From an uncultured Acidobacteriota bacterium (GTDB lineage: Bacteria > Acidobacteriota > Thermoanaerobaculia > Gp7-AA8), in contig CALMZP010000033.1 of NCBI GenBank assembly GCA_937870635.1, positions 1 to 32,304 on the forward strand: DNA of 32,304 bases, given 5' to 3'. The notes under the pieces are model-generated. The model had not been told where the DNA came from. It saw only the letters and a list, made by a program, of their open reading frames with translations, and made no database searches. Shown here piece by piece: positions 12,136 through 17,523 of this stretch; the stretch's first letter is position 1, and each line of letters opens with the position of its first letter. Both the position numbers and the translations under genes were made by a program.

Positions 12136-12218
12136 GGGCGAAAACATCATCCCTCCTAGCAGTGCCCACTCATCGGTCCGTCCAACCGATCCCCAGCCGT
12201 TCAACGAGAGGAGGAAGC

Positions 12219-14891
12219 ATGAAGGTCCTGACCCGATCCATGTCCGTGGTCCTGACTGTCTTGTGTGCGGGAACGCTCGTCGCGAATGTCGCGCCGGCCG
12301 CACCTGACCAGGTTCGAGCCCAGCTGTCGTCGTACTTCAAAAACATCGGTACCAACTCCCCAACTGTCTTAGGAGGCCTCGCCAAATCGCCCGACGCGAT
12401 GGCGGCGATCCAGGAGCGCATCGCAAAGATGAGCGATGCGGAGGCCGCAAAGCTTCAGAAGTTGCTGAGCGAGACGCCTGACTGGCAGATCGCTCCCGAA
12501 GCTTTTGCCGGCGCATTTCCTCCGGAGATGCTCGAGCAGATCAAACGTGTCGGCGCGGATTACACGGCGGCGGTCCCGAAAGCCGAGAAGATGCGCGACG
12601 ACGTCCGGACGCTGGTCGAAGTCCTGAAGCGAGTGCCGGACACGCGGCTTCAGGAGCTCGGCATCGACCGGAAGATGATCGCCTCGCTCGGCACGACGTT
12701 CGAGCAGATGACACCGCTGCAGGTGGCCATGCTCCAACGCCAGGCCACAGGTGCGAACGAGTGGAACGAAAAAAGCGCTCTGGCCATCCACACGCTGCCT
12801 CCCGCATTGCAGCGTGGAGCGATGGCTCTCACGGCACATGGCGCGCTGAGCGAAAAGGACATCGCTGAGCTCAACATGTTCCGGGACGAGCTCGTGTCGG
12901 TGCTGAGCCGGATCGACACTCTGCCGCCCTCGGCGCGCGAAAAACTCAAGATCGGACCGCTCGCAGGAAAGATGGAGCAGATCCGCAATGCGCCGCCGGA
13001 CGTCCTCTTCATGGTCCGTCACAACCTCAGCAAGGAGATGATGGCGACCCTCAAGGCGAACGTCGCATTCCTGGAAAGACTCTCCAACTTCTCGGACGAA
13101 GAGAAGAAGCAGCTCGACGAGTTCCGGAGCGAGCTCGGCGAGGCGCTGCATGGAACCGCCGGGGACGACGCGCAGAAGATGCTCGCCGGCCTCGGACCGG
13201 ACCATCTTTTCATGCTGCGGAAGCAGATGGGACATTACGGCGAGTGGCAGACGGCTCTGCCGGTCGTGTATCAGACGATGTCCGCGCCGGAACTGCCGGA
13301 CCGCCTCCGCCTGGTGGAGGGCCCGGCGGCCGATCCGGGCACGGTCGAATCGCTGGAAGAGTTCCGCGCCCAGGCGCTTCGCTACATCGACGCCGCCGGC
13401 CCCACCTCCGGTCTCGATGCCGAGCTCGTGAAGCGGGCGCGCGCGTCGGTCGAGAGCGCACCGCTGAAACGGCTCGAGCTGATCCGCATGACCGTCGAGC
13501 GCTTGCCCGCCGGATCTTCGGACGCAGCCAAGCTTTCCGTGGCGCTGATGCATGACATCAACTTCGGCTGCGACCTCAGTTTCACCGCGGTCCCGCGCGC
13601 ATGCGTGGTGATCTGCGATCCTACGGGAATCCTCGGTTGCGCCGAAGTGTGCACGCCCGCCGTGGAAGTCTCGGTCAGCTTCGACTTCATCTGCAATCCG
13701 CTCGAGGACGCGATGGAAGCGGTCGAACACAGTGTCACGAGCGTGGCCAACGGCATCGTGAGCACGATGCAGGCCGGCATCAACACAGCGATCAGCAACG
13801 TGCAGTCGGCGATCAACAACGCCATCGCCGCGGTCACCAGCACCATCGACAACGTCGTCAGCGCCATCACCAGCACCGTCAATGACGTGTGGACATTCCT
13901 GCAGCAGCTGCCGGGGAAGGCCTGGGACGCGATCAAGGCCGCTCTCAATCTTCTTCTCGACATCGAGATCAGGAACGGCATCACTCTCCGCGACCTCGTC
14001 GGCCGCGGCGCCGAACATGCCCTCACCTCGATGAAGACGCTCCTCGGCCTAGCCGAAGGATGGTGGAACGCCGTGTCCACGTTCACGCTGCCGGCCATCC
14101 CCTGCCCGCCGGCCGGGTTCCACACCCCGTTCGGCGATGTCGGCGACAGCGCGGCCTCCGACAACTACGGCCGCTACAAGCTCGTGATCGACGGAATCAT
14201 CGGCATGATCCCCGACACGGAAACCAGTCTGGCCATCAAGATCCCCGCGCAGGTGCTCTACATGGCCTTCGACTTCCTCGGCCTCTGCCTCGAACAGGCC
14301 TCGGCTGCTGCCGATTCGGCCCAGCTGACGTCGCGACACAACCTCGTCGTGACGAATTTCGCGAACACGCAGATCTTCGTCAGCACCCAGATCTCCGGCC
14401 TCGCCGCCGCATCCGGCACCCAGACCAACACGATCCTGGCGCTCATCAGCGCGCAGAGCCAGAACATTCAGAACTCGACCAGGAATCACAGCTCGACGAT
14501 CCAGACGCTGGTCAACAGCGAATCGACCGAGATGCACAGCCTGATCGATACCGAGAGCACGAAGATCCAGAACCTCATCCAGGCCGAAAGCGATGACACC
14601 CAGAACGACGTCGCGGAGTTCCAGGAACTGAACCTCCGCCTGACGATCGAACGCGTTCTGCAGGCCGGCACGAACAACGAGGTCGGGCACCTGCAGCTGC
14701 GCGCACCGTGGGGTCGCCTGCAGCGCGTCAGCGAGATCGTGAAGGAATCGATCGATTCGATGAGCACGTCCGGTGAAGGCATCGGTCAGGCTCGCAAGTA
14801 TTACGACACCGCCATGGCGCTGATGGCTGACGGCAAGGACAAGGAAGCCTTCCGGCAGTTCGCACTGGCTTACCGAGAGACCACGAAGTAA
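12219..14891 (+). CDS. Large secreted hendecad coiled-coil protein, paralogue A (unknown function)
   Basis: Not a family I recognise. It is 890 residues with a Sec signal peptide (MKVLTRSMSVVLTVLCAGTL, cleavage probably after ANVAPA). Residues ~30-440 are helical and charged. Residues ~450-490 form a Cys-rich loop (six Cys, including CVVICDPTGILGCAEVC). Residues ~500-560 are hydrophobic 11-residue repeats (VTSVANGIVST, MQAGINTAISN, VQSAINNAIAA, VTSTIDNVVSA). A core at ~575-695 contains LNLLLDIEIRNGIT, EGWWNAVSTF and PCPPAGFHTPFG. More 11-residue repeats follow at ~735-800 (IQTLVNSESTE, MHSLIDTESTK, IQNLIQAESDD), then a helical tail ending in a TPR-like AFRQFALAYRE. Hendecads form right-handed coiled coils, so an oligomeric or envelope structural role is inferred. 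GAGAGGAGG sits before the ATG; paralogue B follows after 22 nt. Confidence 0.85.
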   Translation: MKVLTRSMSVVLTVLCAGTLVANVAPAAPDQVRAQLSSYFKNIGTNSPTVLGGLAKSPDAMAAIQERIAKMSDAEAAKLQKLLSETPDWQIAPEAFAGAFPPEMLEQIKRVGADYTAAVPKAEKMRDDVRTLVEVLKRVPDTRLQELGIDRKMIASLGTTFEQMTPLQVAMLQRQATGANEWNEKSALAIHTLPPALQRGAMALTAHGALSEKDIAELNMFRDELVSVLSRIDTLPPSAREKLKIGPLAGKMEQIRNAPPDVLFMVRHNLSKEMMATLKANVAFLERLSNFSDEEKKQLDEFRSELGEALHGTAGDDAQKMLAGLGPDHLFMLRKQMGHYGEWQTALPVVYQTMSAPELPDRLRLVEGPAADPGTVESLEEFRAQALRYIDAAGPTSGLDAELVKRARASVESAPLKRLELIRMTVERLPAGSSDAAKLSVALMHDINFGCDLSFTAVPRACVVICDPTGILGCAEVCTPAVEVSVSFDFICNPLEDAMEAVEHSVTSVANGIVSTMQAGINTAISNVQSAINNAIAAVTSTIDNVVSAITSTVNDVWTFLQQLPGKAWDAIKAALNLLLDIEIRNGITLRDLVGRGAEHALTSMKTLLGLAEGWWNAVSTFTLPAIPCPPAGFHTPFGDVGDSAASDNYGRYKLVIDGIIGMIPDTETSLAIKIPAQVLYMAFDFLGLCLEQASAAADSAQLTSRHNLVVTNFANTQIFVSTQISGLAAASGTQTNTILALISAQSQNIQNSTRNHSSTIQTLVNSESTEMHSLIDTESTKIQNLIQAESDDTQNDVAEFQELNLRLTIERVLQAGTNNEVGHLQLRAPWGRLQRVSEIVKESIDSMSTSGEGIGQARKYYDTAMALMADGKDKEAFRQFALAYRETTK

Positions 14892-14913
14892 CGGTCAAAG
14901 GAAAGGAGCCATC

Positions 14914-17523
14914 ATGAGAAAAGCCTTCTTATACCTGACCATCGCGGCTCTCATCGTCGTGTTGCCGATGCAGGCGTCAGTCGCGCCGCAGGACAACGCG
15001 AGCCTTCGAAGAGAGCTGTCCTCCTATTTCACCGACATCGCGAAGAACTCACCGACGGTGCTGGGCGGCCTGTCGAAATCACCCGAGACGATGCGGGCCA
15101 TCCAGGAACGCATCGCGAAGATGAGCGACGCCGAGCTCGCGCAGTTCCGGCAGCTCACGGCCCAGACCCCGGACTGGAAGATCGCTCCCGAAGCACTGGC
15201 CAGCGCTTTTCCGCCCGAGGTGCTCGAACAAGTGAAACGCGTGGGCGCCAATTACACGGAAAACGTTCCCGAAGGTGCGGAGATGCGCGAGGACGTTCTC
15301 TCGCTCGTGGCCGTGCTCAAGGTTCTCCCCGAAGACAAGCTGAAAGAGCTCGGCGTCGACCGCCAGCTCGTGACCTCTCTCGAAGCGACGTTCGACCAGA
15401 TGTCTCCCCTCCAGGCGGCGATGCTCCAGCAGCAGGGCGCCGGTTGGACGCCGGCTGCGGGCGCAGCCATCGATGCTCTGCCCACCGCGATGCGCCGCGG
15501 CGCGGCCGCGCTTGCCGAGCACGGCAAGATCACGCCTGCTGACATCGACGATCTCGAGAAGTTCCGCGCCGAGGTCGTACATCTCCTCCGCCGGATCGAC
15601 AACCTGCCGCCCGAGACACGCAAGACGCTGAAAACCGAGGCGATCCGCGATCAGGTCCATCAGCTCAAGCTCGCTGCCCCGGACGCGCTGTTCATGGTCC
15701 GCCACAACCTCCCGCCCGAGATGATCGACGCCCTCGACGAGAACGTCACATTCCTCGAGCGGATCGCCAATCTCTCCGATGGCGAGAAGAAGGAGCTCGA
15801 TGAGTTCCGGAACGACCTCGCCTCGGTGTTCTCCGAGCTCGACCAGAAGGAAGGGAACCCCGAAGCAGCCAGCGCCGCGGACATGCTGTCGACGCTGGGA
15901 CCGGAGCATCTCACTCTGCTGAAACAGGGAATGGATCGCTTCGGCAACTGGCGCACCGCGCTTCCCGTTCTGTATCGCACCCTCGCGTCGCCTGACCTCC
16001 AGGCGCGCCTAGATGCCGTGCAGGGCGAGAACGCCGATCCGGCCGCCATCGCGTCCCTCGAGGACTTCCGTTCGAAGACGCTCGCTTTCATCGATGCCGA
16101 GGCCTCCGCGCCCGGTGCCGATTCACTCATGATGGCCCGGGCGAAGAAGAGTCTCGAGAACGCGCCCGTCGGCCGCCTCGAGATCATGCGCATGACCCTC
16201 GCCGGCCTCGGCAACAGCGCGTCGAAGAAGGACCGCCTCTCGGTGGTTCTGCTCGACGACATCAACTTCAACTGCGCGGTTGACATGCCCAGCCCGGTGC
16301 CCGACATCAGCCTCGACTTCATCTGCAATCCCATCGAGGACGCGCTCGAGGCAATCCGCGACGGCATCGTCAGCACCGTCAACACGATCGTGGCCGGCGT
16401 ACGCTCAGCACTCGAAACGACCATCAACACCGTCTCCAGCGCCCTGAACTCGGCGATCAGCGCCGTCACGAACACGGTCAACAGCATCGTCTCGTCGATT
16501 CAGAACCTGGCCAACCAGATCTGGTCGTTCATCCAGACCGTCCCGAGCCTCGCCTGGAATGCCATCAAGTCCGCATTGAATCTGCTGCTCGACATCGAGA
16601 TCCGGAACGGCATCACCGTCCGCGACCTCGTCGCCCGAGGCGCCGAGCATGCGCTGACTTCGATGAAGACGCTGCTCGGCCTGGCGGAGGGTTGGTGGAA
16701 TGCGGTGTCGACGTTCACGCTGCCGGCTATCCCCTGCCCGCCCGCGGGCTTCCACACTCCGTTCGGCAATGTCGGCGAGAGTGCCGCGGCTGACAACTAC
16801 GGTCGCTACAAACTGGTCATCGACGGAATCGTCGAGATGATCCCCGATACGGAAACCAGCCTGGCGATCAAGATCCCCGCGCAGGTCCTCTACATGGCCT
16901 TCGACTTCCTCGGACTCTGCCTCGAGCAGGCCGCGGCCAATGCCGATTCAGCGGAAGCGGCTTCGCGCCACAACATCGTGCTGACCAGCTTCACGAACCT
17001 GCAGGCTTTCATCGGTACGCAGGTCACGGGGCTGAGCAATCAGAACCAGTCGCAGACCAATACGATCTCGGTGCTGATCAACACGGAGAGCTCGAACATC
17101 CAGACGACGCTCCTCAACGAGAGCACGGCCATTCAGGCGCTGATCAACAATCGGAGCACTTCGAACCAGAACTTCCTCAGCGCGGAGAGCCTCGAGATCC
17201 AGAACCTTCTGCAGAGGGAGAGCGACGACTCGCAGCAGGACATCGCCGATTTCCGGAAGCTCAACCTGCGCCTCATCATCGAGAGGGTGCTGCAGGGGGG
17301 AGTGGGATCCGAAGTCGCTTCGTTCCAGCTGATGGAGCCGATGGGCTACCTCGGTCTCGTCCGGGATGTGGTCCGCGAGACGATCGATTCCATGTCCGCG
17401 GCGGGACAGGGTGTGGGCCAGGCTCAGAAGTTCTATGAGACCGGCCTGTCGCTGTTCAACTCCGGCCGTGAGAAGGACGCCTTCAAGGAATTCGCGAAGG
17501 CGTATCGCGACGCAACGAAGTGA
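14914..17523 (+). CDS. Large secreted hendecad coiled-coil protein, paralogue B (unknown function)
   Basis: An 869-residue paralogue of the preceding gene, colinear along its whole length. The signal peptide is MRKAFLYLTIAALIVVLPMQ, with cleavage near ASVA. The N-terminal block starts LRRELSSYFTDIAKNSPTVL and follows the same order of helices as A. The Cys-rich loop of A is missing: only NFNC and FICNP remain. Hendecads at ~480-545 (IVSTVNTIVAG, VRSALETTINT, VSSALNSAISA, VTNTVNSIVSS) lead into the almost identical core (~555-672). A second hendecad tract follows at ~713-780 (ISVLINTESSN, IQTTLLNESTA, IQALINNRSTS, IQNLLQRESDD). The tail ends AFKEFAKAYRDATK. It has its own strong ribosome-binding site (AAAGGAAAGGAG) and a hairpin terminator 10 nt past the stop. 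A and B probably assemble together (inference). Confidence 0.85.
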   Translation: MRKAFLYLTIAALIVVLPMQASVAPQDNASLRRELSSYFTDIAKNSPTVLGGLSKSPETMRAIQERIAKMSDAELAQFRQLTAQTPDWKIAPEALASAFPPEVLEQVKRVGANYTENVPEGAEMREDVLSLVAVLKVLPEDKLKELGVDRQLVTSLEATFDQMSPLQAAMLQQQGAGWTPAAGAAIDALPTAMRRGAAALAEHGKITPADIDDLEKFRAEVVHLLRRIDNLPPETRKTLKTEAIRDQVHQLKLAAPDALFMVRHNLPPEMIDALDENVTFLERIANLSDGEKKELDEFRNDLASVFSELDQKEGNPEAASAADMLSTLGPEHLTLLKQGMDRFGNWRTALPVLYRTLASPDLQARLDAVQGENADPAAIASLEDFRSKTLAFIDAEASAPGADSLMMARAKKSLENAPVGRLEIMRMTLAGLGNSASKKDRLSVVLLDDINFNCAVDMPSPVPDISLDFICNPIEDALEAIRDGIVSTVNTIVAGVRSALETTINTVSSALNSAISAVTNTVNSIVSSIQNLANQIWSFIQTVPSLAWNAIKSALNLLLDIEIRNGITVRDLVARGAEHALTSMKTLLGLAEGWWNAVSTFTLPAIPCPPAGFHTPFGNVGESAAADNYGRYKLVIDGIVEMIPDTETSLAIKIPAQVLYMAFDFLGLCLEQAAANADSAEAASRHNIVLTSFTNLQAFIGTQVTGLSNQNQSQTNTISVLINTESSNIQTTLLNESTAIQALINNRSTSNQNFLSAESLEIQNLLQRESDDSQQDIADFRKLNLRLIIERVLQGGVGSEVASFQLMEPMGYLGLVRDVVRETIDSMSAAGQGVGQAQKFYETGLSLFNSGREKDAFKEFAKAYRDATK

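What the first reader, a model, noticed from the sequence alone, without database searches (positions are those of the whole stretch)
12219..17523. Operon of two large secreted paralogues with hendecad coiled coils around an invariant core
Seen: two adjacent genes (890 and 869 aa), each with a signal peptide, a strong Shine-Dalgarno and a shared terminator. Both have 11-residue repeats on either side of a core containing EGWWNAVSTFTLPAIPCPP and DNYGRYKLVIDGI. Known: hendecad periodicity supports right-handed coiled coils. Inference: the pair could build a two-component filament, envelope layer or extracellular machine. I know no family with this architecture.
Basis: partly seen in the sequence, partly recalled or inferred. 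Interest (0 to 1): 0.8.

Follow-up and report, generated by a model that had tools for sequence, protein, structure and literature searches.

The report
Paired exported stalk proteins, Acidobacteriota
Two neighbouring genes of a bacterium of the phylum Acidobacteriota encode large exported, almost entirely helical proteins that belong to a rare, unnamed family and probably assemble together as a rod about 22 nm long in the cell envelope; what the rod does is not known.

Summary
Two adjacent genes (890 and 869 aa, 22 bp apart) encode signal-peptide-bearing paralogues (56% identical) with strong 11/3 periodicity on both sides of a core of 121 codons. The core is held by selection, not recent gene conversion: pN is 0.04 against 0.31-0.39 elsewhere, while pS is 0.44 against about 0.56. 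The two quoted peptides are invariant only between these two genes. No curated family or solved structure matches the whole. They are long-form members of an unnamed, patchy Acidobacteriota family: signal peptide, helical head, Cys-containing core, hendecad helix of variable length, C-terminal three-helix cap (DUF4398/TPR-like). Six more tandem groups were found, five in other genomes. Where a stalk is present, the length from the last core Cys to the C-terminus is identical inside a tandem group (200/200, 221/221/221, 163/163, 161/161) but usually differs between groups. AlphaFold gives a 146-residue continuous helix. Best reading: operon-mates co-assemble side by side as an envelope stalk of about 22 nm, with the core as shared joint and the heads diverged. 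The upstream hendecads could equally be a lipid-binding 3-11 helix. 'Extracellular machine' is unsupported. Function is untested.

The parts
12207..12218 (+). Shine-Dalgarno of gene A (AGAGGAGGAAGC)
   Evidence: sequence
12219..14891 (+). gene A, 890 aa exported paralogue
12219..12302 (+). A: predicted signal peptide (about residues 1-28)
   Evidence: inspection; most hydrophobic 19-mer
12306..13568 (+). A: all-helical head, residues 30-450; first module (30-100) homologous to heads of relatives
   Evidence: helical in the model of B
13710..13973 (+). A: upstream 11/3-periodic amphipathic block (residues 498-585, 8 hendecads)
13926..14318 (+). A: conserved core (residues 570-700), Cys629 and Cys690
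14319..14600 (+). A: hendecad stalk (residues 701-794)
14601..14888 (+). A: C-terminal three-helix cap (residues 795-890)
14902..14913 (+). Shine-Dalgarno of gene B (AAAGGAGCCATC)
14914..17523 (+). gene B, 869 aa exported paralogue
14914..14985 (+). B: predicted signal peptide (about residues 1-24)
   Evidence: inspection
14986..16263 (+). B: all-helical head (residues 25-450), pLDDT mostly 60-95
16342..16605 (+). B: upstream 11/3-periodic amphipathic block (residues 477-564, 8 hendecads)
16558..16950 (+). B: conserved core (residues 549-679), Cys608 and Cys669, short beta-hairpin
16861..17298 (+). B: predicted continuous helix, residues 650-795 (end of core, hendecads, start of cap; about 22 nm)
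17233..17520 (+). B: C-terminal three-helix cap (residues 774-869), pLDDT about 92 or more in the last three helices
17533..17560 (+). 12-bp stem-loop after gene B, terminator-like with a poor T tract

Best explanation
A and B are Sec-exported, most likely periplasmic, members of an unnamed Acidobacteriota family of stalk proteins. Each chain has a helical head, an amphipathic 11/3 helix, a core with two conserved cysteines on either side of a helical hairpin (a disulfide staple is plausible), a hendecad-bearing helix of about 146 residues (22 nm) and a three-helix DUF4398/TPR-like cap. The two chains of the operon lie in register in one parallel coiled-coil assembly: the near-identical core is the shared joint and the equal stalk lengths keep the caps level, while the diverged heads bind different things. 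Shown: export signals, homology, purifying selection on the core, equal lengths, predicted helices. Inferred: co-assembly, stoichiometry, disulfide, periplasmic site, span and function.
For: Core pN 0.038 against 0.31-0.39 elsewhere with pS 0.44 against about 0.56. The pattern repeats in a second, independent tandem pair, C91a/b. Stalk plus cap lengths are equal within the four tandem groups that have a stalk (A/B 200, C91 a/b/c 221, G322 163, G378 161) at 24-71% identity, and usually differ between groups. Tandem arrangement recurs in six more groups. AlphaFold: one helix over residues 650-795, pLDDT mostly 75-91, and a cap with pLDDT about 92 or more. Head module shared with shorter relatives in a non-circular profile test (E 4e-9 for B and 1e-6 for A). 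Two core Cys 61-62 apart in A, B, G378_1, C91a and C91b, 58 or 61 in C91c.
Against: No multimer could be modelled and pTM is only 0.39-0.40. Equal lengths could partly reflect limited divergence: the upstream indel rate predicts only 1.5 and 2.2 indels for A/B and C91a/b, where none was seen, so each alone is weak. The tandem pair G438 has unequal lengths (it has no clear hendecads). The G322 pair has no specially conserved core. The G378 partner is split over two contigs and its pairing is inferred. No conserved neighbour gene was found.
Confidence: 0.42

Rival explanations
1. The upstream 88-residue block is not a coiled coil but an uncharged 3-11 amphipathic helix that lies on a membrane or lipid surface; A and B are envelope lipid-binding proteins, with only the downstream hendecads forming a stalk.
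For: Eight regular hendecads with 9 charges in B and 10 in A of 88 residues, S/T/N polar face, mean hydrophobicity 0.53 and 0.48, 11/3 moment 0.43 and 0.41, wide hydrophobic face; low pLDDT there, as expected if folding needs a partner; sub-threshold hits to ApoO and a phasin. Perilipin 4 and alpha-synuclein use 11-mer repeats this way (PMC5889406).
Against: A buried multi-helix bundle gives the same pattern; no lipid-related neighbour genes; the downstream block has a narrow stripe (positions 4, 7, 8) typical of a coiled coil.
Confidence: 0.22
2. Ordinary tandem duplicates that each act alone (for example as homo-oligomers) and do not interact; the core binds a common third partner.
For: Singletons of the family exist in other genomes; core conservation only needs a common ligand.
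Against: Equal stalk lengths within groups are not needed for independent proteins; repeated retention of tandem copies.
Confidence: 0.22
3. A two-component alpha-helical membrane-active (pore-forming) system: exported tandem paralogues with a hydrophobic helical segment that inserts into a target membrane.
For: Exported tandem paralogues with long helices and an apolar hairpin; alpha-pore proteins appear low in the structure lists (AhlB, Foldseek E 2.2; SmhB, Z 4.2).
Against: Those scores are at chance level for long helices; the proteins are more than twice the usual size, with large heads and a cap; no segment beyond the signal peptide scores like a transmembrane helix.
Confidence: 0.06
4. 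Surface-exposed adhesive fibre or layer.
For: Export signal, long helix, heads that differ between members.
Against: No outer-membrane anchor, barrel, sorting or lipoprotein signal recognised in either protein; the C91 triple is directly followed (TAATG overlap) by a HEAT-repeat gene with a lipobox, which fits an envelope-internal site at least as well.
Confidence: 0.07
5. Phage tail tape-measure protein or a prophage remnant.
For: PHROG tape-measure hits to E 1e-10 and tblastn hits to tape-measure genes.
Against: The PHROG hits come from the 94-residue hendecad block; the rest of B gives none; signal peptides; no phage genes in the window.
Confidence: 0.01

Closest known systems
DUF4398 (PA2901, PDB 4fm3)
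   Same: Three-helix domain; the cap of B superposes on 4fm3 with rmsd 1.3 over 59 residues, Z 8.4.
   Different: Pfam does not report DUF4398 for any of 17 caps; Z below 13 is common for helical bundles; no hendecad stalk or head in the solved PA2901 domain (96 residues).
TPR proteins
   Same: Cap profile positions 62-91 match designed consensus TPRs (E 1e-13); a few members hit TPR models weakly.
   Different: At most one hairpin per cap, not an array; only weak Pfam scores; the LP..GG.LE.VR.IV part is not TPR.
CpoB/YbgF (Tol-Pal)
   Same: Periplasmic, coiled coil joined to a TPR-type domain, elongated oligomer (PMC7391070).
   Different: No sequence relation found; from general knowledge the order is reversed (coil N-terminal in CpoB), the protein is much smaller and is not duplicated in tandem.
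Trimeric autotransporter adhesins
   Same: Exported coiled-coil stalks; hendecads are discussed for them (PMC6839023, PMC4786415).
   Different: No C-terminal beta-barrel anchor here; helical cap instead.
Perilipin 4 / alpha-synuclein 11-mer helices
   Same: 11/3 amphipathic periodicity (PMC5889406).
   Different: Cytosolic eukaryotic proteins; perilipin 4 is described as weakly hydrophobic; no head, core or cap of this type.
Phage tape-measure proteins
   Same: Hydrophobic hendecads.
   Different: Match confined to the hendecads.

Membership tests
DUF4398 | Sequence match to the Pfam model | tested here: not met
   17 caps scanned, DUF4398 not among the 13 families listed up to E 1
DUF4398 | Three-helix fold of PA2901 | tested here: inconclusive
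   Z 8.4, rmsd 1.3 over 59 residues, best of the list but below the level trusted for helical bundles
TPR | Repeated 34-residue TPR motifs | tested here: not met
   only weak single-hairpin matches, best E 0.002, in few of 17
Trimeric autotransporter adhesin | C-terminal membrane-anchor barrel domain | tested here: not met
   no Pfam match; C-terminus is a confidently helical cap
Trimeric autotransporter adhesin | Trimeric coiled-coil stalk | not testable with these tools
   only single chains could be modelled
CpoB/YbgF | Sequence homology | tested here: not met
   no match in Pfam or NCBIfam; no PDB sequence match
CpoB/YbgF | Oligomeric coiled coil plus TPR-type domain in the periplasm | not testable with these tools
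   works-like comparison only
Phage tape-measure protein | Homology outside low-complexity helices | tested here: not met
   no PHROG hit for residues 1-470 and 565-869 of B
Phage tape-measure protein | Located among tail genes, no signal peptide | tested here: not met
   no phage genes among window proteins scanned; signal peptides present
Multi-component alpha-pore formers | Fold of AhlB/SmhB type | tested here: inconclusive
   chance-level scores only
Perilipin-like 11-mer lipid-binding helices | 11-mer periodic amphipathic helix | tested here: met
   works-like only
Perilipin-like 11-mer lipid-binding helices | Lipid binding | not testable with these tools
   needs a liposome assay
Unnamed Acidobacteriota family described here | Signal peptide, shared head module, conserved C-terminal cap | tested here: met
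Unnamed Acidobacteriota family described here | Core homologous between long and short forms | tested here: inconclusive
   short-form cores related to each other (E 9e-8); long-form core to them only E 0.005-0.012, though above all 100 shuffles

The most novel reading that the evidence does not exclude
A new kind of envelope-spanning assembly in which operon-mates are length-matched coiled-coil stalks: each operon fixes its own stalk length (69 to 140 residues from the last core cysteine to the cap), so that two or three different chains run in register from a disulfide-stapled joint to a common cap, perhaps acting as a spacer or ruler between envelope layers.
Probability: 0.2. Interest if true: 0.75.

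Novelty: new variant of a known kind. Interest (0 to 1): 0.5.

Why it matters
The family has no curated model in Pfam or NCBIfam although it occurs in about 2% of sampled Acidobacteriota genomes and about 10% of one class. If operon-mates really are length-matched partners, it would be a natural test of how stalk length is set in the cell envelope, in a phylum whose envelope is poorly studied. It also gives a clear case for separating coiled-coil hendecads from lipid-binding 11-mer helices by experiment.

Tried and rejected
Gene conversion as the cause of the identical core: rejected for recent events, since synonymous sites are nearly as diverged as elsewhere. Phage or plasmid origin: no match in plasmids, none in viral contigs; phage hits only through hendecads. 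Anti-phage defence: only chance-level PADLOC hits. Repeats of the head module inside A and B: second copies in A/B score near the level of shuffled controls, so not claimed, although C91c has two clear copies. Relation of the long-form core to the four-Cys short-form cores: not supported (17 of 100 shuffles as good). Whole-model fold searches: no match with Foldseek E below 0.001; best Z 6.7 for the whole and 8.4 for the cap; this does not show that the fold is new. Finding named relatives: the genome-contig scans gave none with P0002 and one with a cap alignment; distribution outside Acidobacteriota could not be tested properly. Papers on hendecads in Acidobacteria: none held.

Full report
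What is there. Genes A (12219-14891) and B (14914-17523) lie 22 bp apart on the + strand, each with a good ribosome-binding site and an N-terminal Sec signal pattern. A strong stem-loop with a poor T tract follows B. The flanking genes are ordinary and do not form an obvious system with the pair: molybdate transporter modABC, a response regulator with EAL domain and a phosphomannomutase-type enzyme upstream; a solute-binding protein, permease and ATPase of an ABC transporter and a CheB/CheR/hybrid-kinase cluster downstream.

Repeats. Hydrophobic residues have period 11/3 upstream of the core (A491-585, B471-565; 0 of 500 shuffles) and downstream (A721-805, B701-785; 0 to 6 in 1000). Upstream there are eight hendecads in the same register in both proteins, with 9-10 charged residues in 88 and a wide apolar face. 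Downstream the stripe is narrow (positions 4, 7 and 8 of 11), as in a coiled coil.

Core. Over 121 codons the pair has pN 0.038 and pS 0.44; the other regions have pN 0.31-0.39 and pS 0.55-0.58, with overlapping intervals for pS. So the amino-acid identity is kept by selection. An older conversion event cannot be fully excluded. The same is seen in a second tandem pair of this genome, C91a/b (pN about 0.07 in the core against 0.43-0.47 upstream), but not in the short-form pair of G322.

Family. No Pfam, NCBIfam, PADLOC or PDB sequence match covers the proteins above cut-off. The same genome has three more paralogues in tandem on contig C91. A profile of the last 96 residues finds relatives in other genomes of the phylum: 8 strong genomes of 396, 4 of 149 in the own class, 16 of 162 in the class of G322. 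The relatives share the order signal peptide, head, core, stalk of variable length, cap. The head module of A and B is related to those of C91c, G381a and G308a in a profile built without A and B (E 4e-9 for B, 1e-6 for A). The long-form core occurs only in this genome and in G378 of 396. Cores of short forms are related to each other; their relation to the long-form core is only suggestive.

Pairs. Tandem copies occur at C33 (A, B), C91 (three), G378 (the contig start holds the N-terminus of a second copy), G322, G602, G609 and G438. The number of residues from the last core Cys to the C-terminus is equal within the groups with a stalk: 200/200, 221/221/221, 163/163 and 161/161, at 24-71% identity, while all members together range from 156 to 258. 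For G378 the partner's C-terminus is on another contig, so that pair is inferred; the equality itself supports it. G438 lacks clear hendecads and is unequal (by inspection). Under the upstream indel rate each pair alone is weak evidence; together they favour matched partners.

Structure. AlphaFold2 of B with 18 rows gave mean pLDDT 71, pTM 0.40: an all-helical head, a long low-confidence helix over the upstream hendecads, then a long helix and a confident cap. The C-terminal 305 residues alone gave pLDDT 78: a short beta-hairpin, a helix (residues 623-642), one continuous helix over residues 650-795 and three cap helices. That helix would be about 22 nm (146 x 0.15 nm). No convincing whole-fold match was found. 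The cap resembles DUF4398 protein PA2901 (Z 8.4, rmsd 1.3 over 59) and contains one TPR-like hairpin.

Reading. The best-supported reading is an exported, probably periplasmic, two-chain stalk whose chains lie in register. What is shown: exported paralogues, selection on the core, equal stalk lengths, predicted helices. What is inferred: co-assembly, disulfide between Cys608 and Cys669, location, and any function. CpoB is the nearest known protein in manner of working (coiled coil plus TPR in the periplasm, PMC7391070) but not a relative. The main rival for part of the protein is a lipid-binding 3-11 helix (PMC5889406).

Noticed in passing
L010:3-4949 (G000 contig C91): Three further paralogues in tandem, followed with a TAATG overlap by a HEAT-repeat protein gene with a lipobox (L010:4949-5785): a possible lipoprotein partner.
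   Followed up: partly
L040:8635-9879, L011:9193-10587, L095: Short relatives with strikingly regular Asn-rich 11-mers (such as IVNNDNTNKDT) before the cap; core positions of a coiled coil would hold Asn, Asp or Lys, so their fold is unclear.
   Followed up: no
L096 (G609:C1:177983-178270, -): A cap protein whose N-terminus looks like a beta-sandwich (DUF11-like by eye) instead of the helical head, followed by many hendecads.
   Followed up: no
window:25633-32274 (-): 2213-aa hybrid histidine kinase with about a dozen near-identical tandem HAMP-like repeats (by eye) and several receiver domains, next to CheR and CheB genes.
   Followed up: no
window:5905-6564 (+): ModC of the modABC operon is only 219 aa and matches positions 8-217 of the 353-position family model, so it lacks the C-terminal (TOBE) part.
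   Followed up: no
window:10439-11686 (+): Gene upstream of A looks like a beta-propeller-type protein by eye but matches no Pfam family.
   Followed up: no
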